This document shows, one piece after another, positions 6,137 to 57,045 of a DNA stretch of 64,000 nt. The notes below the pieces were generated by a model, which saw only the letters and a list, made by a program, of their open reading frames with translations, was not told where the DNA came from and did no database searches. This DNA is from Cristatella mucedo (lineage: Eukaryota > Bryozoa > Phylactolaemata > Cristatellidae). The stretch spans positions 410,001-474,000 of the forward strand of contig WPIO01000072.1 of assembly GCA_009760855.2 (NCBI GenBank), read 5' to 3'. Every line of letters starts with the position of its first letter. The first letter of the stretch is position 1. Position numbers and translations under genes: made by a program.

Positions 6137-9100
6137 GTACGTCGCGCGTTGCGTTCTGTGCTCCCGCAGCGGTGAATCGGCTAGGTCGGCCGCACCGGTG
6201 CGAAACAGCTCCAACGCTTCGCTGGCCGGTTTCTCATGTAATCGCCGTTCGCGTGTGCTCCGCTGTGTACCATGCTTCCATGCTCGCCGGGCCCTGCTCG
6301 TACTACCCGAGGCTCTCAGTCTTCGCAGTCGGTCCTGAACTCCGTAAGCGGCATTGCGAAGGTCTAAGTAACGTGCGGAGATCTAAGTGGCGGAGTAGAT
6401 TTGTGGTGAACTGCTACTTGCCGGAGAGGACTAGCTGCTTTGGTGTTCATCGTTACCAGAGCGAGCTAGATGTTGATTATACGAAGAATTACGTTCGGTC
6501 GCGGTTAGGCGCCGGTGCGAGCCCCTGTGCAAAGCCCACCCGTGCAGTTAAAATAATAGCTAATGGGGCTGGAAGTATTTTAGCCTGCTAGGGTGGCTGT
6601 GAATTGTGATCAGCCTGTTAGCTGTTAGCCTCTGGGTAGTGCTCTTTCGATGCCCATCGATGACTTATACCTTAGGATGACCTTGAAGGGCCAGTAATGT
6701 CCCCGGTGTTCGTGGAATTCTGTTGTCTAAGCGAGAGCGAACTAGAAGATGCAAAATGCTGCTTACGGCGAGACGCCGTATCGGTCGGCGGTTTAGGCAA
6801 ACGAATGCTGTAATTTTGCGACGAGACATTGGTTTGCTCAACGATAACAGAAATACATTTAAAACCACAGATCGGAGGTGAAAGGCTGCCTACAGCGACG
6901 AGGATGGTGTATCCCTATGGCTGGAAAGTATCTGGCTAGTGAGTCGCCGACAGCACGCTTAATCTGTTCTCAGCCACAGCGAGCTCGGAGAGGCTCTTCG
7001 TTCTTTCTTCTTGGCTGTGGATGTCGGAGGCTCTTCTTTTCGTGCTCGGCGGAAGTGCTGTTCGGGTTAAAGAGCCATCCTTGCAAGGGCCTGCCGTCTA
7101 GTCATTCTGCCTAAGGAGAGGAGTTCAACGCAGACCAAGTGAACAGCTGACCAGACCGAGCGAAAGCAGTGCGATTGGTGGGATGGTAGATAGCATTGTA
7201 ACTGGTGTGTCGGCTGCTTTGGTAGCACTGACCCTCCTGTGCCCTAAGTAGACTTCGTGCTCAAACATTGAGCTCGAACTGTGGTGTATCCGATGAAACA
7301 TCCTGCTCCTAAATGAACCACCTCTAGGCCGAGCTCGCATGCGAAACAATGCTCTGCATGCACACTGTCCTGCCACCAACCTATGCCCCCCACAGGGAGG
7401 TGGCCACTCACCAGAGCCATGCACCGTCACGGCTCGGAGCTGCCGGTTGTTGCTCGTTGTGACCGTGAATGGGCCGCCGCCCACCCCATGCAGCTTCCAG
7501 GGCCTGGTGGCCATTTTGCTCGGGTCAGACACCAGGTTTGGTGGGCGCGGTGCGAGGTTTCTGGGTTGGGAGATGTTGAGCATTGCACGTGGCTCTGCTG
7601 AAGCACACTGGCTGTCAGCTTGGGACCCACGTTGTGTGCCCCCAACTCTGGCCGCTCAGCTCTGGCACGTGACCAGGCTCTGCACACGGTGCCGCGGCTT
7701 TTTCAGGCTCAGAACCTAAAGGTGTGCGAAGTGGATGACGAGCTTAAGTCCAAGCTCAAGTCTTTCCGATTCCGAAAAGCGACCAACAATGCTGCCATCA
7801 TCAGTGAGTCCGCAGCCGCCATATTGCAGCAGCAGTTCGCCAGCTGCCATGGCTTCCTTCACTCTCTGCCGAAGCTGCTATGCACACTAACCACTCGCTT
7901 CGTGCTATTGGCATTACCTGCTTTTTCTTTCTGCTTCAGTGAAAATTGACCGCGAGGCACTGAAAGTTATGGTGGACGAAGAACTCGAGGTCTGGCTATC
8001 TCATTCGTGCCTGTTCAAGCGTGCCAACTTGTGCACAGGCTGATGTAGGGCTAGTAGCTGGGGTGGGGGTCTGGTACCTGTGAGAGGGGAATACACTGCA
8101 GCCACTGTGTCTTACCCATGGATTCATACTCCGACTGACAGTTTCACAAAAGTAGTTGTGAAGCCGAAGTTTGCAGGCCAGCCGTGAGTCTACAAAAGGA
8201 AAACTCTTAAAAAAAAGGCTTTTTTCCCTTACATTGACACAGCTTGAATTAGACACTATATAGGAAATCAGGATTATTCTCGAATCATTGCTTGTCATAT
8301 CGATGGATGCTAGGGTGAGTGAAACATATGAGACACGTCGTCTGTTGTGGCTAGGTTTTGAGGTTGGTGGCATTCTCCCACCGTAAGCAGTAACTCCCAA
8401 GTTTCGCATCTGCTTTATGCATGCTTTGGACCTGGCAACATTTCTGAGGCTATAAGGGCACTGGTAATGACTTGAGATACCTGTTGTTTACGATTAAATT
8501 AGCCAACTCAAGAGCGACATTAACCACTTGGGTATGCCGTGGCTCGAAGTTGGGCTTCTTCGAACTTGCATAGATGTGTGAGGAGTGTTTTTTAGTTACC
8601 ATGCCTCATTTAGCTTATTTCAAGGTATTATAACTTAATGAAAGAAAAAAAAAGCAAAAGATACTCTTGAGCTTGATTAATAGAAAACAGTCAGAAGAAT
8701 GAGCTACATTAGTCATTGGTGGTGCCACACAGCCTCCGAAGCATTGCCGTGTCAAGAACGTACAAACCGGAAGTACCCTGTTCAGAGACACTTGCAGATG
8801 ATACCCAATTCAAATTTTGGCCATTATAGAGGAATACGGGTCTTGCACCCACGTAACCCACCGGTAACCCATCGTTATGGTAAACAACGAACCAGAATAT
8901 CTGACAATTTCTCCTTGGTGTCCAGTTCAGGGTTTGTGATCATGTTTAGGGCAAAATAATGTTACTGTATGTTTCTCCTTCTGTAGACGTCAACGACTGC
9001 TGGGTTGCTTCAGAATTCTTTCATTGTACTATGTGAGGGTCAGGTTACCTAAAGTTTTGTGAAAATCAGTGGGAAACACTGATTCCATAGGTGTGGCATG

Positions 9101-12100
9101 ACTTTGTAGCCTGGTTGTAGGGTGGAGATGGGCAAAACGAAGGAGGGAGCTCAAAATGGCGTGGCACACTTAATTACAGTCGCTTGGCTGCAGCAAAGTG
9201 CATTAAGTAAACTGGCCGCCTCTTTGAGCAGTCCTTGCATCAGCTACCATCGCTGCCAGCTCATTTACTGCTGCAGAGCACCACCTTTTCTGGCATGCTA
9301 TGCTGATCCCTACACTGCCTGGGGCTGGAAATCTCCATTGCTCACTGTGCCTGGCTCATGGCGTCAACTTGAGCAGCGACTTTCGGTGGCCCTGGTGCAG
9401 GGCAATATGCCCTGCTGTCTGCCCACTCGGAGAAGCCTTTAGGCATGCAGCTCGTAGCTCGGCACCTGCCTCCGCCTCGCCGTCTGGCAGGCGATTGCCA
9501 CCACCGCCTCCTCCTCTTACGGTCTCTGCTCGGCTGCTTTTGCAGGACTGCTCCGTCGATGAGCTGGTCGCTGCCCTGCCTGACCACCAGCCTCGCTACG
9601 TTGTGTACAGCTACAAGTACGCCCACGATGACGGCCGCGTGTCTTATCCGATGTGCTTCATTTTTATCAGTCCTCAAGGTAGGCTGCGAGTGTGGCGTTC
9701 GAGCAGAGAGCAGCACTGAGAGGGGTGCACCACCTCTGTACAGCCCCACTGATCTTACCTTTGCGTGCCTTACAGTGAGCGGCTGATAGATGCATGGCCA
9801 GCTCCTCTGCTAAAAGTTTGGAAGTGAGGCAATGGTATGAATTCGACACCGCCGTCTTACCTCATCGGGTGCTCTATAGGCTTCCAGTGCTTTTAGCTGC
9901 ACCACAGTGAATAAAATAAATAGCACACAACCGCAGTCGACCAAAATTATAAAGCTGGCGTTTTAATTGTAATTGCTAGATGGTTATTTCGGTCACTCAT
10001 AACCCGACCACTTGTCGGCGGTCACCGGCGATAGTGCACCCCTCTCGTAGACCGTGCACTACCCGTGACTTTTTCCTGTGAGCAGAGCATTGAAGGTGGC
10101 CGGTGCTAACGGCGAGCCAAAGCCACCAGCCGGTGACAATGCTTTATCCTATCTCATCTTGCCGCTTTGTATGTTTCAATGACAGTAAGCATGCAGCAGC
10201 CGGATATAGCTGACTCGTTAATGTACAGTGATTGCGCAATGCTTAATTTTTTTTTAGTTTTTAGAAAAAAATAAAATGAACATCAAATTAGCGGATTTAT
10301 CAGCCTCATTTGTGTAGCAGCAGAAGAACCTTAACGGCTATCACCACTGCTTGCAGTTGGTAATAGAGGATGGCCCACTGCAGGATTCGAACACATGACC
10401 TCGGCCAGTGAAAAGCGAGCACATTACCTCCCGGGCTATCACGGCCTTGCAGAAAAGGTGCCTCCCTGGCTACTTGGAAAACAACCATCACACCTTACAC
10501 ATATATTACATTTTTTCTAGCCACTGAGCTGACACGAGCCTTTTGTCTATGCCAGCTGGTTTGGCCTCGTGGTTAAGGTGCTCATCTGTAACAACCTAAA
10601 GTCCATGTGAATGTATTTGATGACCGAGGTCGTGGGCTCGAGCCCCGTGGCGTATGTGAAGCGCCTGAATCGAGATTGTTCTCTTAGGGCGTTGTTCACA
10701 CGAATTGCCGATACATTCAACGCTGCCTGCTGGTTGGGGGGGGGTGAGCAAGCTCTTCGAAGGGATATCAACAGTAACTCCTAGGTGGCACAGTCATCGT
10801 TATAAAAGTAGGAGCTGGGTGCGAAAGAGCAATGGAAAGCAGGCGATTCGACCTGGGTGATATTCACCACACCATCTTGTCGGCCCCATTCTTCAGGGCT
10901 GAGACCTACCACAGATGAACCAGCGAGAATTTTGCCTTCCCCTAGAGCAGCTGTTCCCAACCTGTGGGTCATGCCCCCTTTGGGGGTCGAACGACCCTTT
11001 CACAGGGGTCGCATAAGACCATCGGAAAACACGCATTTCCACATTTTGCACAAACAATAATTTTAGTGGCTGGGGATCGCCACAACATGAGGAACTGTAT
11101 TAAAGGCATTAGGAAGGTTGAGAAGAACCACTGCCCAAGAGGAAGCACCGGGTAGGTGGTCGTCACCAGCAGCCCAAGCTTTGGTTTCGCCCGGCACAGG
11201 CAGAGCAGAGCACTTTACCCATTGTCGGGCCTCGGTGGCGGCATCGATTCTTGAACTCGCCTCAGGCTCTCACGTACCAGTCTGTCCATCCAGCGCTTCG
11301 TTCCTCTCGTCTTCTCCCACGACTGCAACCGCAGCCCCATTCACCGACTCACAGGAGGCGTGTCATGGAACACCACAGCAGAGTGCCTGCTGTCCTAATG
11401 CCTTTTTCATGTGGACACGGTTTCTCAACGTCACTTCCTCTGTCGTTGTGCCGGAGGTTCGACCGGTCAGCTGCACTGACTGCTTGCTGCTTTAGGTTGC
11501 AAGCCAGAACAGCAGATGATGTATGCCGGAAGCAAGACCTCCCTCGTTAATGAGACTGGCATGACTAAGGTAAGCTATGCTCTCACTGTGTGTGCGCGGT
11601 GCGCTCTCGACGAGCAGCATGCTGCCTAAGACCTGCAACGGCCCAGCTTAGATTTGGCACAAATACAATCGGTTTCACATGGTAGTAGTAATAATAAGAC
11701 TTCTGTATAGTGCCCATGAGAACTAAATCGCCTTTTAGGCACTTCACATATTCTGTAAAGGAATCACATAGTATATGCACAAATGGCCACACATGCGAAT
11801 GCCTAAAAACTAAAAATTGATTTTTTCATTAACTTAAAGTAAGAAGGCCGATTTGAATGTGCAAACTGCAATCACAACTGCTGTAGCTAAAGTGTGACCA
11901 AGCAATGTGTGACCTTTGCCAGATTACATGGCCTCAGCAATCTATGGCGTTCACATCTGCACGAGCTCAGCGCAAGTGCACACACTTACTACATGGAGGT
12001 TTGACTTTCATTGTGGGCACAAATGTTGTTATGGGTTTACGCTTAAGGCATGTCTACGTTTCACTCATGTCTGTCATCTACTGCAAGTCACTGCACCCCC

Positions 12101-12936
12101 CATTTTTGGAGCCACACTTAGTTATTGCACCTATGCTAAATACCTATGCATTTTCTTCAACCATTTCACTACTCCAATTCAGCATTGCTTTATACTATTG
12201 CGTTCTCGTCAGGTATGGCATCACACTAAGCAAAATACGGTAGCCAGGGGCAAGGAGGGAGGGAGGGAGGGAGGGAGGGGGAGATGCTGGCCTCTTCTCA
12301 TCTTGCCGGCCCGGACCTGGGTGCTTCACATGAGCTACTCGTGTGCATCATGCACCTGTGACGGTTATACTCACTGAGCTGAACCTCAGCCAGGCAGCAG
12401 CTGATGCATAGGATGAACAGCATCTCCCAAAGCTAATGGCCAGAATGTCGGCTCTTTAAGCGCAGCTACGGGGGAGGGGGGCGTGGGTGAAGCAGTGAGC
12501 TAGGCAGCATGCCCCCTTTGGTTTAGCGCTGCCCACTATGGCAAGCTGGCTGGCTCGCCTCAGCACAGCAGCCTATGCCACTGAAACCTACTCAGCCTAC
12601 CCAACAACTCTCAACCGGAATTGTTACTTCGGCATACCATGCCCCAGTTTCCAGACCAACGGTTCCTCTCCCACCGTCAGGCATAAGCTCCATACATCCG
12701 CCCGATGCCACAAATGCCGACTGCAACTACTCCAGCACGCAGGCTTCTTTCTCGGGTGAGCCCCTTGCGACCGATGGTGGTGTGCGTTTGCTCCTAAGTT
12801 GCGTTTCGTCCAACTGCTGTGTGCCACTGATCGCCAGCAGGATGGACGCGGCTGCGCACTGTTTTAGGTTTACGAGCTGCGCAGCCTGGATGAACTCACA
12901 GAGGAGTGGCTCGTCAGTAAACTACAGAAACTCTAA
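6134..12936 (+). CDS. GMF: Glia maturation factor (ADF-homology actin/Arp2/3 regulator), six-exon gene
   Basis: Joining exons 6134-6136, 7707-7803, 7940-7989, 9546-9678, 11496-11569 and 12868-12936 gives 141 aa and a stop, almost exactly the usual GMF length (about 142 aa). All phases agree. Motifs readable in order are [71 protein letters not shown], and a C-terminus [13 protein letters not shown]. These are the hallmark GMF blocks of the ADF-homology fold. Family knowledge: GMF binds the Arp2/3 complex in the cytoplasm, promotes debranching of actin networks and inhibits nucleation; unlike cofilin it does not bind actin strongly. Introns 4 and 5 carry SINE, SPIN-like and LINE insertions. 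The gene converges on the HINT1-like gene at 13884-18002. The weakest points are exon 1 (ATG only) and the poor exon 3 donor. Confidence 0.93.
6137..7706 (+). other. GMF intron 1 (proposed)
   Basis: It is GT...AG bounded, with donor GTACGT and acceptor TTTTTCAG. The open frames inside it on both strands have no recognised motif. It probably carries regulatory sequence, but nothing specific is visible. Confidence 0.45.
7707..7803 (+). CDS. GMF: GMF exon 2
   Basis: The acceptor is CTTTTTCAG|GCT and the donor is ATCA|GTGAGT. It encodes [19 protein letters not shown] followed by the [13 protein letters not shown] block and ends phase 1. Confidence 0.92.
7940..7989 (+). CDS. GMF: GMF exon 3
   Basis: The acceptor is TCTGCTTCAG|TGAAAATTG. 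The split codon A+TG gives Met, so the protein reads AIIM-KIDRE as in other GMFs. It ends at GAG with donor GTCTGG, which is a poor match to GTRAGT but is forced by phase and by the EELE-DCSVDEL continuity. Confidence 0.85.
7990..9545 (+). other. GMF intron 3
   Basis: About 1.56 kb. I see no clear transposon or repeat in it. Confidence 0.7.
9546..9678 (+). CDS. GMF: GMF exon 4 (core of ADF-homology fold)
   Basis: The acceptor is GCTTTTGCAG|GAC and the donor is CAAG|GTAGGC. Its 44 codons hold [15 protein letters not shown] and [13 protein letters not shown], the most conserved GMF segment. Confidence 0.95.
10290..10448 (-). mobile_element. tRNA-derived SINE, family A (in GMF intron 4)
   Basis: The minus strand starts with a tRNA-like head: an A-box-like block around GATAGCCCGGGAGGTAA and a B box, GTGTTCGAATCC. 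A body follows with the family motif GGTGATAGCCGTTAAGG and an end TTCTGCTGCTACACAAATGAGGC. Five other copies in this window share the same order of blocks. Confidence 0.8.
10548..10710 (+). mobile_element. tRNA-derived SINE, family B (L2-tailed; in GMF intron 4)
   Basis: The tRNA-like head has an A box in TTTGGCCTCGTGGTTAAGG and a B box GGGCTCGAGCCCC at 10634. It is followed by the tail GTGAAGCGCCTGAAT...GTTCTCTTAGGGCG, which is the same 3' hairpin as the LINE copies here. The end has decayed. Confidence 0.85.
10948..11133 (+). mobile_element. SPIN-like non-autonomous hAT (Buster group) element, copy 1
   Basis: The element is 186 bp and starts CAGCTGTTCCCAACCTGTGG. It contains TTTGGGGGTCGAACGACCC and AAGACCATCGGAAAACACG, and ends AGGAAGGTTGAGAAGAACCACTG. 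These blocks match my memory of the SPIN consensus ends. It is flanked by ccctagag (10940-10947) and cccaagag (11134-11141), an 8-bp duplication with one mismatch that fits the Buster nnnTAnnn pattern. It has no coding capacity. It lies in GMF intron 4. Confidence 0.88.
11496..11569 (+). CDS. GMF: GMF exon 5
   Basis: The acceptor is TGCTTTAG|GTTGC and the donor is AAG|GTAAGC. It encodes the [13 protein letters not shown] block and a TGMTK end. Confidence 0.95.
11680..11768 (-). mobile_element. L2/SINE 3' tail fragment (GMF intron 5 region)
   Basis: Read on the minus strand: AAGTGCC...GAGAACT-type hairpin then ATTATTACTAC repeats. Only the common LINE/SINE tail is left, so the class cannot be decided. 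Confidence 0.65.
12251..12284. repeat. (GGGA)n microsatellite in GMF intron 5
   Basis: A run of GGGAGGGA units ends in a G-rich tract. Confidence 0.9.
12868..12936 (+). CDS. GMF: GMF exon 6 with stop codon
   Basis: The acceptor is ACTGTTTTAG|GTT. It encodes [19 protein letters not shown] and ends QKL-TAA at 12934-12936. Confidence 0.95.
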   Translation, partial: VYELRSLDELTEEWLVSKLQKL

Positions 12937-13883: not shown

Positions 13884-18002
<4,119 letters not shown>

Positions 18003-22483: not shown

Positions 22484-23882
22484 TGTTAATAATAATAATG
22501 CACTAGATAAAGCACCCTCAGAGAACTCAATCTCTATCTAGCCGCTTTACATTTGCTGCAAAGGGAAATGCAATTGAATGGTGAGTAATATCATGCTTGT
22601 TAAACAAACAACATGAATAATATGGTTAGGGGTGACATGCACAGGGTCAGCATGCAAATGTGGTTAGTGGCAGCATGCACAGTATCAGCACGCATAAGCA
22701 CATCAAGGACGAATCACAGGGACCCACTAAATGCTGTCCTAAATAGGTGTTTTTAAGTTCTTTTTAAATGTGGTCAAGTCAGGGGATGTTCTGCCGCAAG
22801 TAGGGAGGGAGTTCCAGGCTTTGGGAGCATACGAACTAAATGCACGGTCTCCAAAGGATTTAAGGTTTGTACGAGGAATTTCTAGACTGTTGGATTCCGA
22901 AAAGCGGGTGGTACGATGCTTGGCCTGGTGGGGGAGTAGATCTGAGAGATAGGCTGGAGCCAAATAATGAAGTGACCTAAAAGTGAGCGACAAAACCTCG
23001 AAGTCAATCTGTTGCTTGACTGGTAGCCAGTGCAGGTTGGCGAGAAGAGGTGTGATGTAGCAACTGCGACGCTCACGACAGACACGCCTAGCTGCAGAGT
23101 TTTGCACCAGCTGCAATCGCCTGATCGCACATGCCGATAGGCCAGGAAGCAGTGAGTTGCAGAAGTCGAGACGGGATGTGACGAATGCATGGACCAACTT
23201 TGACGTGGTATCCTTATCTAAACAAGCCAGAATTTTAGCAATGTTATGTAGCTGAAAGTAGGCAGATTTGACTGTGGAGCTGATGTGGTCGTCTAACGAG
23301 AGGTCACTTTGGAACAAGACACCTAGATTTTGAGCTGATTCAACAGGAGATATGCTGGCAAAGCCAATTTTGAGCGTCAGCCTTTCCAATTTGTGAATCA
23401 CACTGAGTTTGCCCATAACTAGTAAGTTAGTGTTATCATCGTTTAGTTTTAGAAAATTTGCTGCCATCCATGTGCGGATGTCATCAATACATGCAGTAAG
23501 TGAGTTGAGAGAATTTGAGGTGCTCCAAGGCTGGGAGGGATCAAATCAAAGGTGCAACTTAGTGTCATCCGCATAGAAGTGAAAGCCTAGATTGTGCTTG
23601 GCAATCACATCAGCAAGAGGGAGAGTATAAACCGTGAAAAGAACCGGACCCAGCACGGAGCCCTGAAGTACCCCATATTTCAGAGGTATCTCGGATGATC
23701 TTTGTCCATTCACGTCAATACTCCGGAGTCTCCCACTGAGATAGGACCTGAACTATTGCAGAGCAGTGCCAGTGATGCCCAGGCGAGACGAGAGGCGCTC
23801 TAAAAGAACTTTGTGCTCGGTAGTATCAAAAGCTTCGGAAAGATCGAGCAAAACAAGCAGAGCAAGCAAGCACTCTACCCAA
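22484..23882 (-). mobile_element. L2-like LINE, subfamily 1, 5'-truncated and mutated
   Basis: On the minus strand it runs from the LLDLSEAFDTTEHK block (RT motif A, D present) through a 242-residue frame at 23467-22739 to the 3' UTR and tail hairpin ending in TTATTATTA at 22484. The YADD region and flanks contain stops or shifts, so no full RT is made. It is very close in sequence to the intact copy at 55.3-57.05 kb. Confidence 0.92.
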
Positions 23883-25050: not shown

Positions 25051-26110
25051 CCACATTTCCCCGAAAAAAGACCAGGTAGTATACTAATTTTTGCTCCAAA
25101 AGACGCATTATGACTTATTTTACGATAATGTCTTATTTTTCAGGTACAACAACGATCTAAATTTACTCATTTATTGATGTACAAAAATATGCATTTATTC
25201 ATGCAAGCAAGTCCAACTTTTTTCAAATACAGTCTTCTTTTGGTAGATTATCACACATCTTCAAGCCCTTAATTACATAATGAATTTACAAGCTGTTTTA
25301 TCTTCATTAGATTTTCAATTTAGTAATTGATTTCTATGAGCAAATGATCCTGGAATGGCTTTTTTACTGCAATATCAAGAGTCTAGAGGTAAGCAATCAC
25401 TTCTTCGGAAATCATTATTACATATTTTTTTTTCTTCGAGGAAGTTCTCCATGTCTTTAGCATTGAGTACTGGTTGAATCTCAGACTGGGAGACCTCTTT
25501 GGCCACCTCGAAAAACTAGTGGCATCATTGAATCAACCCACTTACTCATAACTGCTTGTGTGCACCGAGCTTTTTGGGTTTGAAGAACATAAATACCCCG
25601 AAACGCGTTTAATCTTATCTTTATTGCCTTCAGCGGTGATTAGAGGGCTTCCTTTCCATATATATGAATTTAAAAAATAGAGGTAACACGTGCACTTTCG
25701 TGAATAGCGGATAGACTGTAGACTGATGAGGCACTCCTCTGACGAATCGTCGAGATCCAGGGTCCATAAGTACTGCAGTTTCATCCACATGAGTTATTCT
25801 GGAGAGTCGGTATTTAGAAAAGTCAATGCCCTCAACAAAGAATTTAAATACGCCTGCAGTTTTAATAACTTCAGTCTCTTTGAGCTTAACTGGTGTTATC
25901 GATCTTCATAGAGACAATCCATACCGCTGAACAAGCCACCCAGCTAGTGTTGGGATGCTTTGAATTCCGCCCCGTGCATAACCAAAGCCTTTTTTCTGGT
26001 CAGAAATCCAATCACAGACGATGTCGCCCAGCTCAAGAAATAATGGTTGACGAAATGATCTACATTTGCACTTCTTGGCATTTCTCTATTTCACCTGTTA
26101 ACTGATGTTA
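25051..26110 (-). mobile_element. Pogo/Tigger-like Tc1/mariner transposon, copy 1, 5'-truncated
   Basis: After a TA at 25049-25050, the terminus reads CCACATTTCCCCGAAAA, followed by TTTTTGCTCCAAAAGACGCATTA, the 3' end of the element. Broken minus-strand frames then give pieces of a pogo-type transposase: SPLITAEGNKDKIKRVSG (25540-25790), upstream pieces around a DET-like motif, an EFKAS-QH block and a WLVQRYGLS-like block (about 25900-26080). The N-terminal helix-turn-helix end is missing. Many stops and shifts make it a pseudogene. Confidence 0.75.
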
Positions 26111-26242
26111 TCATTATCTTCTCGTCGTTATCAGACCATTTGGGCATCCAATACATTTGCACTATTCTAGATCTTAACACTGGATGGATGAACTGTCAGC
26201 CGGCTTTATAGAGCACTAATAAATCCATAGGATATCACGGAG

Positions 26243-28214
26243 TTTGAAATAGCCAAGAATAAGACCTGAGCGATAATAATCCCTTGCGGGATTATTCAAG
26301 ATGCTCATAATATAAGCCTTATCCCAGAAAAAAAGCCCGGTTAAAAGGAAACGGCAGCAATATGAGTTATCTCCTCTGTCATCTATATGAAGATGTGGAC
26401 AGAAAGCAAACGAATAGACATGGACTTTGGCTCTAGTCACAATTTCTTACCACTAAATTTATAAGGCAAAAAGGAGGAAAAAATTCGCGTGCCATGCTTT
26501 TCATTGAATCATTAAATTCATAAATTATTATTTCCTTAAAATTATTAGTAAAATCATTATTTGAACACTGCGCAAGAAATTTTTTCTCAACTTGATAACT
26601 GTAGATTTAAAGGGAATCCTATTTTGACTCTCAGCCAATAAGATTTGCAAAAAAGAGCCATTTCTTCGAGTACGAGAAAATATCGTGGAGGACTTCCGGG
26701 ACAAGAATCTTTTGGCTTTCTGCAACGAGTAGAGGTTGGATATCCAAACGGTCTGAAAATAGCGAGCAGAATACGATAACCTCAGTCGAAAGGTAGGCCA
26801 GAGATACTGAGGAGCTCAGATGTGGACCAGGTTGGAAACAATTATTTTCTGAGCTGGACGACATTGTCTGTGAATAAATTGCTGACAGGAGAAAAAGATT
26901 TGGTTGTACAGAAGGCACGATATTCAATAGTTTGCACTTGCAATGGCACTATAGTTAGTAATGTCCCAAGAGAATTCAAAGCTTCACGACTCTGGCTGGA
27001 TTGCTTCCTTCAGCGATATGAACTATCTCTACGAAGATCGACAACACTATTTAAGTTCGGAAATACTGACGCTATTTAACGGACAGCCGAATTCGAGTCC
27101 TTTGTTAATGTCGTCAACTTGTGTGAGTACCAAGTCTCCACATTGTTTTCCATGGATGAAACTGTAGCATTTATGGTCCAAGGATCTCAAAATGAAAAGT
27201 GATAAGACGGGTACCTCGTGAATCGACATAATATTAATAATGATAGTAATAATAATTATTATACAATTGTATAGCACCCTCAGAGAGCTGAATCTTTTTC
27301 TAGGCACTTTACATATGCTTTAAAGGAAGCATGATCAAATAGTGGTAACATGCACAATGTCAACAAGCATGACATGGTTTTAGGTGACAAGCACAGTGTC
27401 AACATTCCCTCCACGGATTATGAAAGTGCACGCGTTACCTCTATTTTCGAAATTCACATAGATGGAAAGGAAGCCCCCACCTCTAATCGTCACAAAGAGC
27501 AAGAAAGGTAAGATTAAGCAATAGACATAGTTTTTGTTAGGCATTTATGTTCTTCAAACTAAAAACACCAGGTGCTCGCGAGTAGTTATAGCAAAGTGGG
27601 TCGATTTAATGCAGCCACTTGTTCTTAAAGGTGGCCTAAGAGGTCTGCAAGTCTGGGATTCAGCCAGCACTCATCTCGCTAAAGACAATAGTTACCTTGG
27701 TGTGAGAAGAGTAGATGTAATAATAATTCCGCAGGAATGACTACCTAGCTCGAGACTCGTGATATTGTAATAAATGAGCTATTCAAGGATCATTTGCTCT
27801 TAGAGATCAATGGCTAAATTGAAAATAGAATGAAAGGAGTACAGCTTGGAAAATTTGTACAGCCGAACCTGCAAGAGGTCGTGACTTGTGTGAAGAATTC
27901 ATCTGATAAATTCAATGATAGCTGGGTTGTGTTGCTATTGCAATTCGAACAGGCCACATGGAAATTAAGTGCTCGTTTAACGAGAGCACTATTACAGGAC
28001 ATGGGAGATTGAGGCCAATGGTTATAGAGCAAATGGATTCGCACGAGATTCGGGTCAGAATTTGGGATTTGGAGATTTATGACGACGTTTCGTACGATAA
28101 GGAAATGACTGTGCTTGAACAAGTGTAGATTTGTGTCACGAATAAATGCTGAGAATTGCACAATAAAAATAGGCAACCCCTGAACATAAACCTTAATGTT
28201 TATCTCGGAGAAAC
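26243..28214 (+). mobile_element. Pogo/Tigger-like Tc1/mariner transposon, copy 2, near full length but decayed
   Basis: The left end reads TTTGAAATAGCCAAGAATAAGACC (a mutated TTTCCCCGAAAATAAGACC), then ATGCTCATAATATAAGCC. The right end resembles the complement of copy 1's terminus (CCCCTGAACATAAACC...TCTCGGAGAAACG). In between are a helix-turn-helix block with VEDFRDKNLLAFCNE (about 26690-26735), a CENP-B-like block around SWIASFSDMNYLYEDR-type sequence in a shifted frame, KWVDLMQPLVLKGGLRGLQV and the catalytic WDSASTH (27653-27673), and VKNSSDKFNDSWV (about 27880-27930). It is shifted and stopped many times. An L2 tail is inserted at 27230-27410. Family role: DDD transposase, cut-and-paste at TA. 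Confidence 0.8.
27230..27410 (-). mobile_element. L2-like LINE subfamily 1 tail inserted in the pogo-like copy
   Basis: On minus it ends in the AAAGTGCC...GAGGGTGCT hairpin followed by ATTATTATTA. It interrupts the transposase between the DET-region remnant and the VSGIYVL-like block, so it post-dates the transposon. Confidence 0.8.
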
Positions 28215-40684: not shown

Positions 40685-40832
40685 GTTGATTCAGCAGCTT
40701 TATTTATGTAGGGTAGAAGAGGCTTCGCGGCTATCACCCCATCTGCCGAAGACAAGAAAGGATTGTCTGCGACAGAACTTGCAACCATGACCTGGGGCAT
40801 AAAGTGCAAACTAGGCTAAGGTACCCCTAGAC
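40685..40832 (-). mobile_element. SINE family A copy, diverged, abutting a SPIN-like element
   Basis: The blocks TTATTTATGTAGGGTAGAAGAGGC, GGCTATCACCCC and a decayed B box (GAACTTGCAACC) are in family order. Its tRNA-like head appears to continue at 41021 after the SPIN-like insertion. Confidence 0.65.
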
Positions 40833-41020
40833 CAGCGGTTCTCACACTGTGGGTCGCGTCCGCTTTGGGGGTCGAACGACCATTTCACAGGATTCGCCTA
40901 AAACCATCGGAAAACACGCATTTTCACATTTTGCGTACACAATAATTTTATGGTTGGGGTCGCCACAACAAGAGGAACTGTATTAAAGGGTTTCGACATT
41001 AGGAAGGTTGAGAACCGCTG
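40833..41020 (+). mobile_element. SPIN-like non-autonomous hAT (Buster group) element, copy 2
   Basis: 188 bp. The termini form an inverted repeat: CAGCGGTTCTCA at the left and TGAGAACCGCTG at the right. Internal blocks include TTTGGGGGTCGAACGACC, AAAACCATCGGAAAACACG, AATAATTTTATGGTTGGGG and AGGAACTGTATTAAAGGG. It is flanked by ccctagac and ccctaggc, an 8-bp duplication with one mismatch (nnnTAnnn). It shares the same internal structure as copy 1, so both come from one short non-autonomous form. Confidence 0.92.
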
Positions 41021-41029
41021 CCCTAGGCT

Positions 41030-47827: not shown

Positions 47828-48775
47828 AAAATAATAATAATAGGTCATTTATATAGCGCATGAAGAGAACTTAATCTCCAATCAGGCGCTTTAAAACTCG
47901 CTATTAGAGAATCGATAACCATGGAGTTAGTAAGGTACACATTGTCAAGCATGCAAAAGCAAATAAGTATCATGCTTAAACCATGCCTAAACCTGAAGCC
48001 AGCATAAAGTTAATCCTAGCCACAGGTTTGTAGGAACTCTATTATGTAAAAATCTATTAATTGTGCACGGGTAAGCACGCAAGGCACATTCGGAACAAAA
48101 AAGAAACATTGTCGATGGTACGTGTGGAAAGCTGACAAAAACAGATGTGTTTGCAGCTGAAACTTACAAGTTGCTTGGTCATTGAAGGTAGAGACCGTAG
48201 CCAGAAGTGGATGGCGTGAGGGCATTCTGGACGAATAAGACGTCGGACAGGTAGGCTGGTGCAAGCGCGTGAAGTGACCTATGAGCCAGACCGAGAATCT
48301 TTAATTGATTTGATGCTTGATAGGGAGCCATTGAAGCTCAGATAATAGAAGTGATTATCATGTGGCAGCTACGCCGTTGACAAGCGATCAGACGAGCTGC
48401 TGAGTTTTGCACCAAATGCAGGCGATAAGGGCAGATGCCGCAAGTCCTGAATACAGAGATTTGCAATTATCTAGATACGACGTCGCAAATGCGTAAACCA
48501 GTTTTTGTGTCGTACTCTTATCTAAGCAGGCTCTAATTTTGGCGACCTTCAGCTGAAGGAAGGCCGACTTGAAACAGGAGGAAATGCCCTCGTCTAATAA
48601 CACGTAATTTTGGAATAGTTCAGCCGAATAGAATACGGGCATGTCGTACATCGTATGTCAGTACTATGTCGTTGGAGTGGTATTAGCGGAACCGATCTTG
48701 AGGGTTTAATCTTCCAACTCTCGGGTGATACTAGATTTACTTATAACTCTTAACTTGATCTTATCATCAAATTCA
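47828..48775 (-). mobile_element. L2-like LINE subfamily 1, older copy, 3' half
   Basis: On minus it contains [34 protein letters not shown] and CKSLYSGLAASALI, then a 3' UTR and the tail hairpin at 47835-47895. More diverged than the copies at 22.5 and 55 kb. Confidence 0.82.
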
Positions 48776-50095
48776 AGGCACGCTCTCCAAAGGATTTGAG
48801 GTTCGCACGAGGTGTAGGTGAACGACTCGATTCAGAAAATCGAGTTGTACGATGCTTAGCCTGGTGGGGGAGTAGATCCGATACGGAAGGCTGGAGCCAA
48901 AGAAGGAATGTATCTAAAAATTAGTGACAGAACCTTGAAGTCGGTTCGCTGCGAGAGAGGGAGCTAGTGCAGGTCAGCTAGAATTGGTGTGATGTGGCAA
49001 CTGTGACGCTCACGACAGACAAGCCCAGCTGCAGAGTTTTGCACCATCTGTAAGTGCCTGATTATTGCACAGGCCGATCGACCAGCAAGCAGTGAGTGAC
49101 AGAAGTCGAGACGGGATGTTACCAATGCATGGGCCAATTTATATGTGGTAACCCTGTCTAAGCTAGCCCAAATTTTAGCAATGTTATGTAGCTGGAAGCC
49201 GACAGACTTGACTGCGAAGCTGATGTGATCGTCTAATGAAAGGTCACTTTGGAATAGGATACCTGGATTCCATGCAGATTCACTATGAGATATGCTGGCA
49301 GAACCGATTTTGAGCGTCAACCTTTCCAATTTCTGAATCACACTTGGTTTGCCCATAACTATTAAGTTGGTTTTTATCATCATTCAATTTAAGAAAGTTT
49401 TCTGTCCTCCATGCGCGGATGTCATCAATATATGCCGCAGCGGAGCTGAGAGAATTGGAAGTGCTGCAGGGCTGCGAGCGATCAAAGCGAGAAGCCGCAG
49501 TGCTGAGTGCCTGCGTCCGCATGGACGTAGAAGCTATGCCGAGAAATCGCATCGGCGTGTGCGAGAGCAATGTCATGTAATGTATCTCCGTCTGTAACCC
49601 CCGCAAAGCCATAAAGACAATGAGGGTGTTGGGCAGGAGAAAGTTTTGTATAGAGCACTCACTGCCTAAGAGGCTTTCGGTACGCATTCGGTAGCCAGCA
49701 GTATAAACCAGACCAAGCGCAGAGCCCTGCGGTACCCCATACTTCAGTAATTTTTCGGATGATCTCTGTCCGTTCTCGTCAATACTCTAGAATCTCTCAC
49801 TGAGATAGGACCTGAACAATAGCAGTGCAGTACCAGTGATGCCCAGGCGAGATGAGAGACGCTCCGGAATAGGATCTTAAGGATCGATAGTATGAAAAGC
49901 TGCCGAAGCAACCGAGCAAAACAAGCAGAGACACTCTACCCTGAGTCTGAATTCCTAAGTAGGTCGTTATACACACGAAGCAATGCTGACTCTCTGGACA
50001 GATTAGCTTTAAAACCAAACTGGAACTTACTAGCAATGTTTGAAGTTTCAATATATGAGTTCAGCTGGTATGCCACACTGAGGCGTATGGAGGGG
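48776..50095 (-). mobile_element. L2-like LINE subfamily 1, second copy
   Basis: On minus it runs from the RT 5' side (ADQLNSY / SESALLR-type remnants at about 50000) through a decayed YADD region to [31 protein letters not shown] and a C-terminal block at about 48780-48870. It stops abruptly at the older copy without its own tail. Frame breaks occur at about 49380 and 49700. Confidence 0.85.
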
Positions 50096-54959: not shown

Positions 54960-55245
54960 TGTGAAGAAGAGATGAAATTTAAGCTTCTTTTTTAGATCTT
55001 TGTAAGTCAGAGGCTTTTATTTTTACGTCAGTAGTGAGCGAGTTTAAGGCTTTGCGAGCGTATGAACGCTTTTTAAACGGTTCAAGACGGTTTTCACCGG
55101 ATTTAAGGTTAGGTATAGGCAAGGCTAAGCGAGTTGAATCAGAAGAGCATGTGGCGCGCTGTCTTGCCTGGTTGGGAAGTAGTTCAGATAGGTAGGACGG
55201 AGCAAGAGAATGATGAGACCTAAAAGTGAATGACAACACTTTTAC
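54960..55245 (-). mobile_element. L2-like LINE subfamily 1 C-terminal fragment
   Basis: On minus it encodes [20 protein letters not shown] and LPNQARQRAT, and a decayed AWNSL-like block (ALNSL). It lies head to head against the intact plus-strand copy. Confidence 0.82.
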
Positions 55246-56809
55246 AATAATGATAAGACATTCGCACGACTTCGTGGTGCATAATGGAAACTTGAGAGAC
55301 TGTGGGCTACTGCTCCTACGTTGCATTGATCTGCTGCTGCCATGCATAACCAACATCATTAATATGTCACTAGCCTCAGGTCAGGTCCCAGCACCTTTCA
55401 AAAAAGCTGTAGTCAGGCCACTTCTCAAGAAAGCTACACTAGACCAAGAGAACTTAAGCAACTACCGCCCAGTCTCCCTTCTACCATTCCTATCAAAGAC
55501 ACTGGTACGGGTCGTGGCAGACCAGCTGAACTCGTATATCGAAACCTCACACCTTGCTAGTAAGTTCCAGTCTGGCTTTAGAGCTAATCACTCCACAGAG
55601 TCAGCATTGCTTCGGGTGTACAACGACCTACTTAGGAATGCAGACATGGGTAGAGTGTCTCTTCTTGTCTTGCTCGATCTTTCGGCAGCTTTTGATACCA
55701 TCGATCACAAAGTACTTCTAGAGCGCCTCTCATCTCGCCTGGGCATCACTGGCACTGCTCTGCAGTGGTTCAGGTCCTATCTCAGTGGGAGACTCCAGAG
55801 TGTTGACGTGAATGGACAAAGATCATCTGAAGTACCTCTAAAATATGGAGTACCTCAGGGCTCTGTGCTAGGTCCGGTCCTTTTCACCGTTTATACTCTC
55901 CCTCTCGCTGATGTGATTGCCAAGCACAATCTAGGCTTTCACTTCTATGCGGATGACACTCAGTTGTACCTTTGCTTTGATCCCTCCCAGCCTTCGAGCA
56001 CCTCAAATTCTCTCAACTCATTTGCTGCATGCATTGATGACATCCGATCATGGATGGCAGCAAATTTTCTAAAACTAAACGATGATAAAACTAACTTACT
56101 AGTTATGGGCAAACCTAGTGTTATTCAGAAATTGGAAAGGCTGACTTTCAAAATTGGCTCTGCCAGCATATCTCCAGTTGCATCAGCTCGAAATCTAGGT
56201 GTCATATTCCAAAGCGACCTCTCGTTAGACGACCACATCAGCTCCACAGTCAAATCAGCCTATTTTCAGCTTCATAACATTGCTAAAATTAGGGCTTGTT
56301 TAGATAAGGATACCACGTCCAAGTTGGTCCATGCATTCGTGACATCTCGTCTCGACTTCTGCAACTCACTGCTTACTGGCCTACCAGCATGTGCGATCAG
56401 GCGATTGCAGCTGGTGCAAAACTCTGCAGCTAGGCTTGTCTGTCGTGAGCGTCGCAGTTGCCACATTACTCCACTTCTCGCCGACCTGCACTGGTTACCA
56501 GTCAAGCAACGGATTGACTTCAAGGTTTTGTCGCTCACTTTTAGGTCTCTTCATTCTATGGCTCCAGCCTATCTTTCAGATATACTACCCCATCAGGCAA
56601 AGCATCGTACCACTCGCTTTTCGGAATCCAACAGTCTAGAAATACCTCGTACAAACCTTAAATCCTTTGGAGACCGTGCATTTAGCTCGTATGCTCCCAC
56701 AGCCTGGAACTCCCTCCCGACCTGCATCAGAACATCCCCTGACCTGACCACATTTAAAGGAAACTTAAAAACATACCTATGTAGGACAGCATTTAGTGGG
56801 TCCTTGTGA
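55226..56809 (+). CDS. LINE ORF2 reverse transcriptase, 5'-truncated but open (527 codons)
   Basis: The frame opens at 55226; LINE homology starts near 55310 ([15 protein letters not shown]), so the first ~28 residues are probably fortuitous. RT blocks in order: [11 protein letters not shown] (~59), [13 protein letters not shown] (~80), [13 protein letters not shown] (~117), [13 protein letters not shown] (motif A, ~148), [11 protein letters not shown] (motif B, ~207), [10 protein letters not shown] (catalytic motif C, ~238), then the [14 protein letters not shown] and [20 protein letters not shown] blocks and a C-terminal [15 protein letters not shown]. The N-terminal apurinic-type endonuclease of a full L2/CR1 ORF2 is missing. 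Family role: target-primed reverse transcription. The absence of stops suggests recent insertion. Confidence 0.93.
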
Positions 56810-57045
56810 TTCGTCCTCGATGTGCTTATGCGTGCTGACACTGTTCATGCTGCCACTAACCACATTTGCATGATGACCCAGTGCATGTAACCCCTAACCA
56901 TGTTATTCATTTTGTTTGTTTTTCAAGCATGATTTTACTTACTATTCTATTGCGTATCACTTTGCAGCAAATGTAAAGCGCCTAGAAAGAGATTAAGTTC
57001 TCTGAGGGCGCTTTATCAAGTGCAATATTATTATATTATTATTAT
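55300..57045 (+). mobile_element. L2-like LINE subfamily 1, youngest copy with 3' UTR and tail
   Basis: 5'-truncated inside the ORF2 protein just before the reverse transcriptase. It then runs without interruption to the stop at 56809, a ~190-bp 3' UTR and the 3' hairpin and TTATTA tail. It is the best reference for the other copies in the window. Confidence 0.93.
56975..57014 (+). other. L2 3'-end hairpin (RT recognition structure)
   Basis: AAAGCGCC (56975-56982) pairs with GGCGCTTT (57007-57014). An inner AGAG...CTCT pairing lies in the loop. It is followed by ATTATTATATTATT. The same structure ends SINE family B. Confidence 0.85.

What the first reader, a model, noticed from the sequence alone, without database searches (positions are those of the whole stretch)
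40833..41020. SPIN-like (Space Invader) hAT element in an invertebrate-type genome
Perfect 12-bp terminal inverted repeat CAGCGGTTCTCA, internal blocks GGGGGTCGAACGACC and CCATCGGAAAACAC, and an 8-bp duplication ccctagac/ccctaggc of the Buster type. From memory these match SPIN, a family known for horizontal transfer among tetrapods and to a few invertebrates (Rhodnius, Lymnaea, planarian). If the host lineage is new for SPIN, this is a new transfer event.
Basis: partly seen in the sequence, partly recalled or inferred. Interest (0 to 1): 0.82.

Follow-up and report, generated by a model that had tools for sequence, protein, structure and literature searches.

The report
SPIN transposon relic in a lophotrochozoan
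A short, non-coding jumping-gene relic of the SPIN family, best known for hopping between vertebrates and a few invertebrates, is present in over a thousand copies in what appears to be a lophotrochozoan (mollusc-like) animal genome, which points to another cross-species transfer whose host remains to be named.

Summary
Window 40833-41020 is a 188-bp non-coding hAT element: perfect 12-bp inverted ends and an 8-bp target duplication (7/8) of the nnnTAnnn type. The window's own genome (572 Mb) holds over 1,000 copies: an internal 20-mer matches 1,118 times, a 3' 20-mer 1,520 times, reversed controls 2 each. A consensus of 29 copies agrees over its ends with sequences I recalled earlier: 155/157 positions with mouse URR1A, 158/159 with a tetrapod SPIN MITE. 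The recall also predicted inner sequence found later in longer copies. So this is SPIN, not merely a hAT with similar tips. The host is not a vertebrate; its mitochondrial gene order, read by eye, looks lophotrochozoan and unlike that recalled for heterobranch snails. Near-identity of non-coding DNA between such distant animals is best explained by horizontal transfer. SPIN is already reported from Rhodnius and Biomphalaria, so this is a new member of a known kind; whether it is a new transfer depends on naming the host. No SPIN transposase was found. Caveat: no repeat database was available, so the reference sequences are recalled.

The parts
40833..41020 (+). Copy A: non-autonomous SPIN-type hAT element, 188 bp, non-coding
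   Evidence: differs from the consensus at 15 of 186 positions
40833..40844 (+). Left terminal inverted repeat of copy A
   Evidence: 12/12 complementary
41009..41020 (-). Right terminal inverted repeat of copy A
40825..40832 (.). Target-site duplication, left (CCCTAGAC)
41021..41028 (.). Target-site duplication, right (CCCTAGGC; 7/8)
10948..11133 (+).
   Evidence: differs from the consensus at 12 of 180 positions
10940..10947 (.). Target-site duplication of copy B, left (CCCTAGAG)
11134..11141 (.). Target-site duplication of copy B, right (CCCAAGAG; 7/8)
7707..12924 (+). Context: GMF-like gene (exon matches 7707-7802, 7939-7989, 9540-9680, 11492-11572 and a last one ending at 12924); copy B lies between the third and fourth
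   Evidence: tblastn with recalled human GMFB; Pfam Cofilin_ADF for 9540-9680

Best explanation
The element is a miniature, non-coding derivative (MITE) of the SPIN family of hAT transposons (Buster group). It kept the two ends that a SPIN transposase would recognise. Transposase made by full-length SPIN copies cut it out by its ends and inserted it at sites of the form nnnTAnnn, duplicating 8 bp (mechanism inferred from what is known of hAT elements; ends and duplications are shown here). SPIN reached this lophotrochozoan lineage horizontally, multiplied to more than 1,000 copies as a 187-bp MITE plus longer non-autonomous forms (320-642 bp in six read), and then decayed: the copies examined differ by 3-8% from their consensus. 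Direction, donor, vector and date of the transfer are unknown.
For: Second copy with its own duplication. Own genome: 40 scored matches of 2,116 candidates, on 27 contigs, the 39 besides copy A at 87-89%; inner MITE 20-mer 1,118 and 3' 20-mer 1,520 matches at up to 2 mismatches, against 2 each for the patterns read backwards. 29 copies give a 187-bp consensus. By model boundaries 20 of 29 have flanks matching at 7 or 8 of 8, against 15 of 812 cross pairs; 20 of 29 have TA at the centre of both flanks. Consensus ends against recalled sequences: URR1A 76/76 and 79/81, SPIN MITE 84/84 and 74/75, against at most 55/157 in 1,000 shuffles of URR1A and 54/157 for recalled MER5A. Of 24 sites where A and B differ, the consensus has the recalled SPIN base at 24 and the URR1A base at 22; at 3 positions where neither window copy has the consensus base (copy B is gapped at two of them) both recalled sequences have it. 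A 70-mer of consensus plus recalled inner SPIN sequence gave 43 matches (40 of 566 candidates scored), 17 of them over 66 or more bases, best 97%. All 7 such loci that were read match recalled URR1A on both sides, best 92.6% over 135 nt.
Against: The SPIN and URR1A references are recalled, and were typed after copies A and B had been seen. The end spans compared stop where agreement stops: beyond them it falls (URR1A 77/84 at the 5' side, SPIN 74/81 at the 3' side), because the middle of the 187-bp form is its own. 9 of 29 copies have flanks below 7/8 by model boundaries (one of them copy B, 7/8 by eye), and 2 of 6 longer copies do too. No SPIN transposase was found: 0 of 30 hAT loci and 0 of 12 Buster-type loci checked bear SPIN ends. 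Host species and neutral rate are unknown.
Confidence: 0.9

Rival explanations
1. An unrelated hAT-Charlie/Buster family that merely shares the common ends CAGNGGTTCTCAA.
For: Such ends are widespread in hAT elements (recalled); recalled MER5A agrees with the consensus at 13 of the first 15 bases.
Against: Agreement continues through 76-84 bases at the 5' side and 75-81 at the 3' side and into inner blocks of longer copies; MER5A agrees at only 54 of 157 positions.
Confidence: 0.04
2. A SPIN-type family inherited vertically in lophotrochozoans since before the split from vertebrates.
For: A SPIN-like hAT of about 1,000 copies is reported in another lophotrochozoan, Biomphalaria glabrata (PMC5440852, passages).
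Against: Non-coding ends agree at about 99% with recalled rodent and tetrapod sequences, while copies in this genome are already 3-8% from their consensus; neutral DNA would not stay that similar for more than 500 million years (general knowledge). No related genome could be searched.
Confidence: 0.04
3. Contamination of the assembly by vertebrate DNA.
For: SPIN is abundant in some tetrapods (recalled); read depth could not be checked.
Against: 40 scored matches lie on 27 contigs and the 20-mers match more than 1,000 times; copy B lies in an intron of a GMF-like gene of the window; the longer copy L084 is followed by an L2-like frame like those of the window (by eye); COX1 of the assembly excludes the vertebrate code.
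Confidence: 0.01

Closest known systems
SPIN (SPACE INVADERS) non-autonomous elements of tetrapods (recalled sequence); also reported in Rhodnius (PMC11614815, passages)
   Same: Both ends (84/84 and 74/75), 8-bp duplication with central TA, inner block GATGGTCTTAGGAACCGAGACACCGCTCCTCT in longer copies.
   Different: The 187-bp form has its own deletion junction (GCATTTCCACATTTTGCACACAATAATTTTATGG); the host looks lophotrochozoan.
URR1A of murid rodents (recalled sequence; SPIN-related)
   Same: 76/76 at the 5' end and 79/81 at the 3' end; the block CATTACGATTCATA...GTAGCAAAATTACAGTTATGAAGTAGC occurs in longer copies here, up to 92.6% over 135 nt.
   Different: The 187-bp MITE lacks that block.
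SPIN-like hAT of Biomphalaria glabrata (PMC5440852, passages read)
   Same: Lophotrochozoan host, about 1,000 copies; that paper reports no intact transposases in its assembly.

Membership tests
hAT superfamily | 8-bp target-site duplication | tested here: met
   20 of 29 copies at 7/8 or better by model boundaries (plus copy B by eye), against 15 of 812 cross pairs
hAT superfamily | Short terminal inverted repeats beginning CAG | tested here: met
   12/12 in copy A; 15 of the first 16 consensus bases complementary
hAT superfamily | hAT transposase encoded by an autonomous partner | tested here: inconclusive
   hAT and Buster-type transposases exist in the genome, but none checked bears SPIN ends: 0 of 30 loci L010-L039, 0 of 12 loci L066-L077 (12 of 69 matches)
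Buster group | Target preference nnnTAnnn (definition recalled) | tested here: met
   TA central in both flanks of 20 of 29 copies
SPIN | High identity to a SPIN consensus | tested here: inconclusive
   Met at 158/159 and 155/157 end positions against recalled sequences, and the recall predicted unseen sequence; a database consensus (Dfam/Repbase) was not available
SPIN | Transposase in the SPIN branch of a phylogeny | not testable with these tools
   No SPIN coding copy found; no reference protein at hand
SPIN | Discontinuous distribution consistent with horizontal transfer | tested here: inconclusive

The most novel reading that the evidence does not exclude
A separate horizontal invasion of SPIN into a lophotrochozoan lineage from which it has not been reported (possibly a class or phylum new for SPIN), carrying the same inner blocks as rodent URR1A, so that invertebrate and mammalian SPIN MITEs descend from one recent common source.
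Probability: 0.5. Interest if true: 0.6.

Novelty: new member of a known kind. Interest (0 to 1): 0.47.

Why it matters
SPIN is a textbook case of DNA transposons crossing between animal phyla. An abundant SPIN population in a lophotrochozoan outside the snails named so far would widen the host range and give a datable invertebrate branch for asking which animals were sources or go-betweens. It also shows that inner blocks recalled from rodent URR1A and tetrapod SPIN occur together in this animal's longer copies.

Tried and rejected
Tick origin: considered from GC content and a tRNA-like SINE; dropped because a recalled tick SINE matched only at its tRNA-like part, with weak E-values, the cuticle family PF00379 gave no match (its control rang nowhere, so this is weak), and the mitochondrial gene order is not the one recalled for arthropods. 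Vertebrate host: table 2 gives 8 stops in COX1. Haemocyanin PF14830 (control rang nowhere) and hemerythrin PF01814 (control rang in 7 of 14 prokaryotes) gave no match and do not fix the phylum.

Other collections: SPIN patterns in viral contigs, 4 scans, 0 matches; genome contigs, 0 matches and 1 match to a degenerate pattern (L001), which extended to no more than 25 nt and is taken as chance; blastn of copy A against phages and of copy B against plasmids, no match. Four SPIN sequence strings in paper text: 0 papers. Two original SPIN papers are not held. Rfam: no match in the window.

SPIN transposase: recalled TcBuster protein led to another family. The young hAT family is not SPIN.

Full report
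1. The observation. Window 40833-41020 reads CAGCGGTTCTCA...TGAGAACCGCTG, 188 bp, with a perfect 12-bp terminal inverted repeat and flanks CCCTAGAC / CCCTAGGC. The 12-bp pair alone could be chance (mean 1.5 per simulated window), but pair plus a 7/8 duplication appeared 0 times in 100 simulated windows. The strand folds better than its shuffles (z -3.9), as inverted ends would make it; this says nothing about function.

2. A second copy. Reading the window for host genes showed another copy, 10948-11133 on the + strand, with duplication CCCTAGAG / CCCAAGAG. A profile of the two finds no third in the window (next hit E = 5.7). The two agree at 158 of 181 aligned positions (11 transitions, 12 transversions, K2P 0.14). 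Copy B lies in an intron of a GMF-like gene (exon matches to recalled human GMFB; Pfam Cofilin_ADF for one exon).

3. The genome. The window is G000:C657:410001-474000 of an assembly of 572 Mb in 688 contigs. Copy A matched at 40 scored places of 2,116 first-look candidates, on 27 contigs, the 39 others at 87-89%. A 20-mer of the 3' end matched 1,520 times and a 20-mer of the MITE's inner part 1,118 times at up to 2 mismatches, against 2 each for the patterns read backwards. Each counts copies that keep that 20-mer, so more decayed copies are missed.

4. Consensus and insertion marks. I aligned 28 of the 40 scored matches (copy A, L003-L009, L046-L065; 12 not fetched) plus copy B, 29 in all. 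The ends of the 187-bp consensus are complementary at 15 of the first 16 bases. By model boundaries 20 of 29 copies have flanks matching at 7 or 8 of 8, 7 of 29 at 8 of 8 and 23 of 29 at 6 or more; cross pairs reach 7 in 15 of 812 and 6 in 61 of 812. TA is central in both flanks of 20 of 29. Copy B was scored 2/8 there because the model stopped short of its end; by its visible end it is 7/8. L006 and L061 share their left flank (79/80) and are one duplicated locus. Leaving L061 out, 28 copies differ from the consensus by 5.6% on average (3.2-8.1%). These were the best matches to copy A, so the figure leans low; A and B are at 8.1% and 6.7%.

5. Is it SPIN? No repeat database was at hand. Against these single copies score modestly: gapped BLAST 79.0% (A) and 76.8% (B) to SPIN, 72.0% and 70.7% to URR1A; in ungapped columns of the alignment 147/172 and 146/166 to SPIN, 153/188 and 152/182 to URR1A. 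The later consensus agrees with URR1A at 76/76 (5') and 79/81 (3'), and with the SPIN MITE at 84/84 and 74/75. These spans end where agreement ends; further in it drops (77/84 and 74/81), since the middle of the 187-bp form is its own. Shuffled URR1A reached at most 55/157 in 1,000 trials, MER5A 54/157. The recall was not simply copied from the window: where A and B differ (24 sites in that alignment), the consensus has the recalled SPIN base at 24 and the URR1A base at 22; at the 3 positions where neither window copy has the consensus base (B gapped at two), both recalled sequences do.

6. A further prediction. The recalled SPIN sequence continues inward where the 187-bp MITE is deleted. A 70-mer with that continuation gave 43 matches (40 of 566 candidates scored), 17 of them over 66 bases or more, the best at 97%. 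I read 7 of these loci. Six are bounded elements of 320, 321, 482, 484, 573 and 642 bp; their flanks match at 7 or 8 of 8 in four, and at 5 (L079) and 3 (L084) in two. L082 looks like broken pieces. All seven match recalled URR1A on both sides: 76-94% at the 5' side and 80-93% at the 3' side, including the inner block recalled from mouse, best 92.6% over 135 nt in L078. The bounded ones are too short to code for a transposase.

7. Autonomous partner. The hAT dimerisation domain PF05699 gave 138 matches (150 of 766 candidates scored); 63 score 69-78 bits and the next 45. The 30 of these that were fetched (L010-L039) are 98.8-99.8% alike in their main DNA alignments, bar one piece of L030 and one of L036, and have no SPIN end within 1,500 bases; the 8 printed have the right end ...GGTACAGCCCTA. 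That is another, young hAT family. Recalled TcBuster protein gave 69 matches at 28-34%, 65 of 69 with stops; in 12 of 12 checked the downstream end is ...AAAAAGGTTGGACACCCCTG or a close variant, and none has a SPIN end (57 not checked). So no SPIN transposase was found; the mover is inferred.

8. Host. COX1 on contig C688 reads without stops under tables 4, 5, 9, 13, 14 and 24 but with 8 stops under the vertebrate table 2. Naming the other mitochondrial frames by eye, one strand carries cox3, atp6, cox1, nad3 and then nad1, nad6, cob, nad4L, nad4, nad5, the other nad2 and cox2; trnT and probably trnP lie opposite to the nad1-nad5 block (ARAGORN in a permissive mode). From memory this block is typical of molluscs, nemerteans, brachiopods and phoronids and not of arthropods or annelids, and heterobranch snails such as Biomphalaria and Lymnaea differ. 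PF14830, PF01814 and PF00379 gave no match, which is weak evidence. I conclude: a lophotrochozoan, phylum open.

9. Reading. Non-coding ends this close to recalled rodent and tetrapod SPIN are not expected after descent from the bilaterian ancestor; horizontal transfer, direct or through other species, is the best account (inference). Copy divergence suggests that the burst is over, not when it happened.

10. What is known. SPIN, OC1, hAT1 and ET are reported in Rhodnius (PMC11614815, passages). A hAT of about 1,000 copies with significant identity to SPIN is reported in Biomphalaria (PMC5440852, passages). Squamates are named as SPIN hosts in PMC11008031 (passages). Lymnaea and planarian hosts are recalled only. 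Seven paper searches showed no other invertebrate SPIN host in the listed titles and abstract beginnings; several lists were capped, and most subscription papers are not held, so this does not show absence. Verdict: SPIN, a new member of a known kind; a new transfer event is plausible but unproven until the host is named.

Noticed in passing
G000 loci L010-L039: 63 of 138 hAT-domain matches form one high-scoring group with open frames mostly 148-642 aa; the 30 fetched are about 99% identical, right end ...GGTACAGCCCTA in the 8 printed: a recently active hAT family other than SPIN.
   Followed up: partly
G000 loci L066-L077: A decayed Buster-type family with right end ...GGTTGGACACCCCTG; 69 matches to recalled TcBuster, 65 with stops.
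   Followed up: partly
window 22489-23862, 48770-49869, 55217-57040: L2-like LINE copies (RVT_1 in the frame 55220-56797), about 80-92% alike over shared stretches.
   Followed up: no
window 42768 and 14236 (- strand): tRNA-like SINE pieces with a GGTTCGAATCC B box and a similar downstream part.
   Followed up: no
window 25545-27076: Possible remnants of a pogo/Tigger-type transposon (HTH_Tnp_Tc5 match below its cut-off; a DDE-like piece on the other strand by eye, no Pfam match).
   Followed up: no
window 13896-17981 (- strand): HINT-like gene in at least three exons (HIT domain in two of them).
   Followed up: partly
G000:C688 (L044, L045): 21-kb mitochondrial contig with a block present at about 11.6 and 13.7 kb and again inverted at about 3.1 kb.
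   Followed up: no
G000:C653:10034886 and 10088810: Two SPIN copies (L061, L006) with 79/80 identical left flanks, 54 kb apart: a duplicated segment.
   Followed up: no
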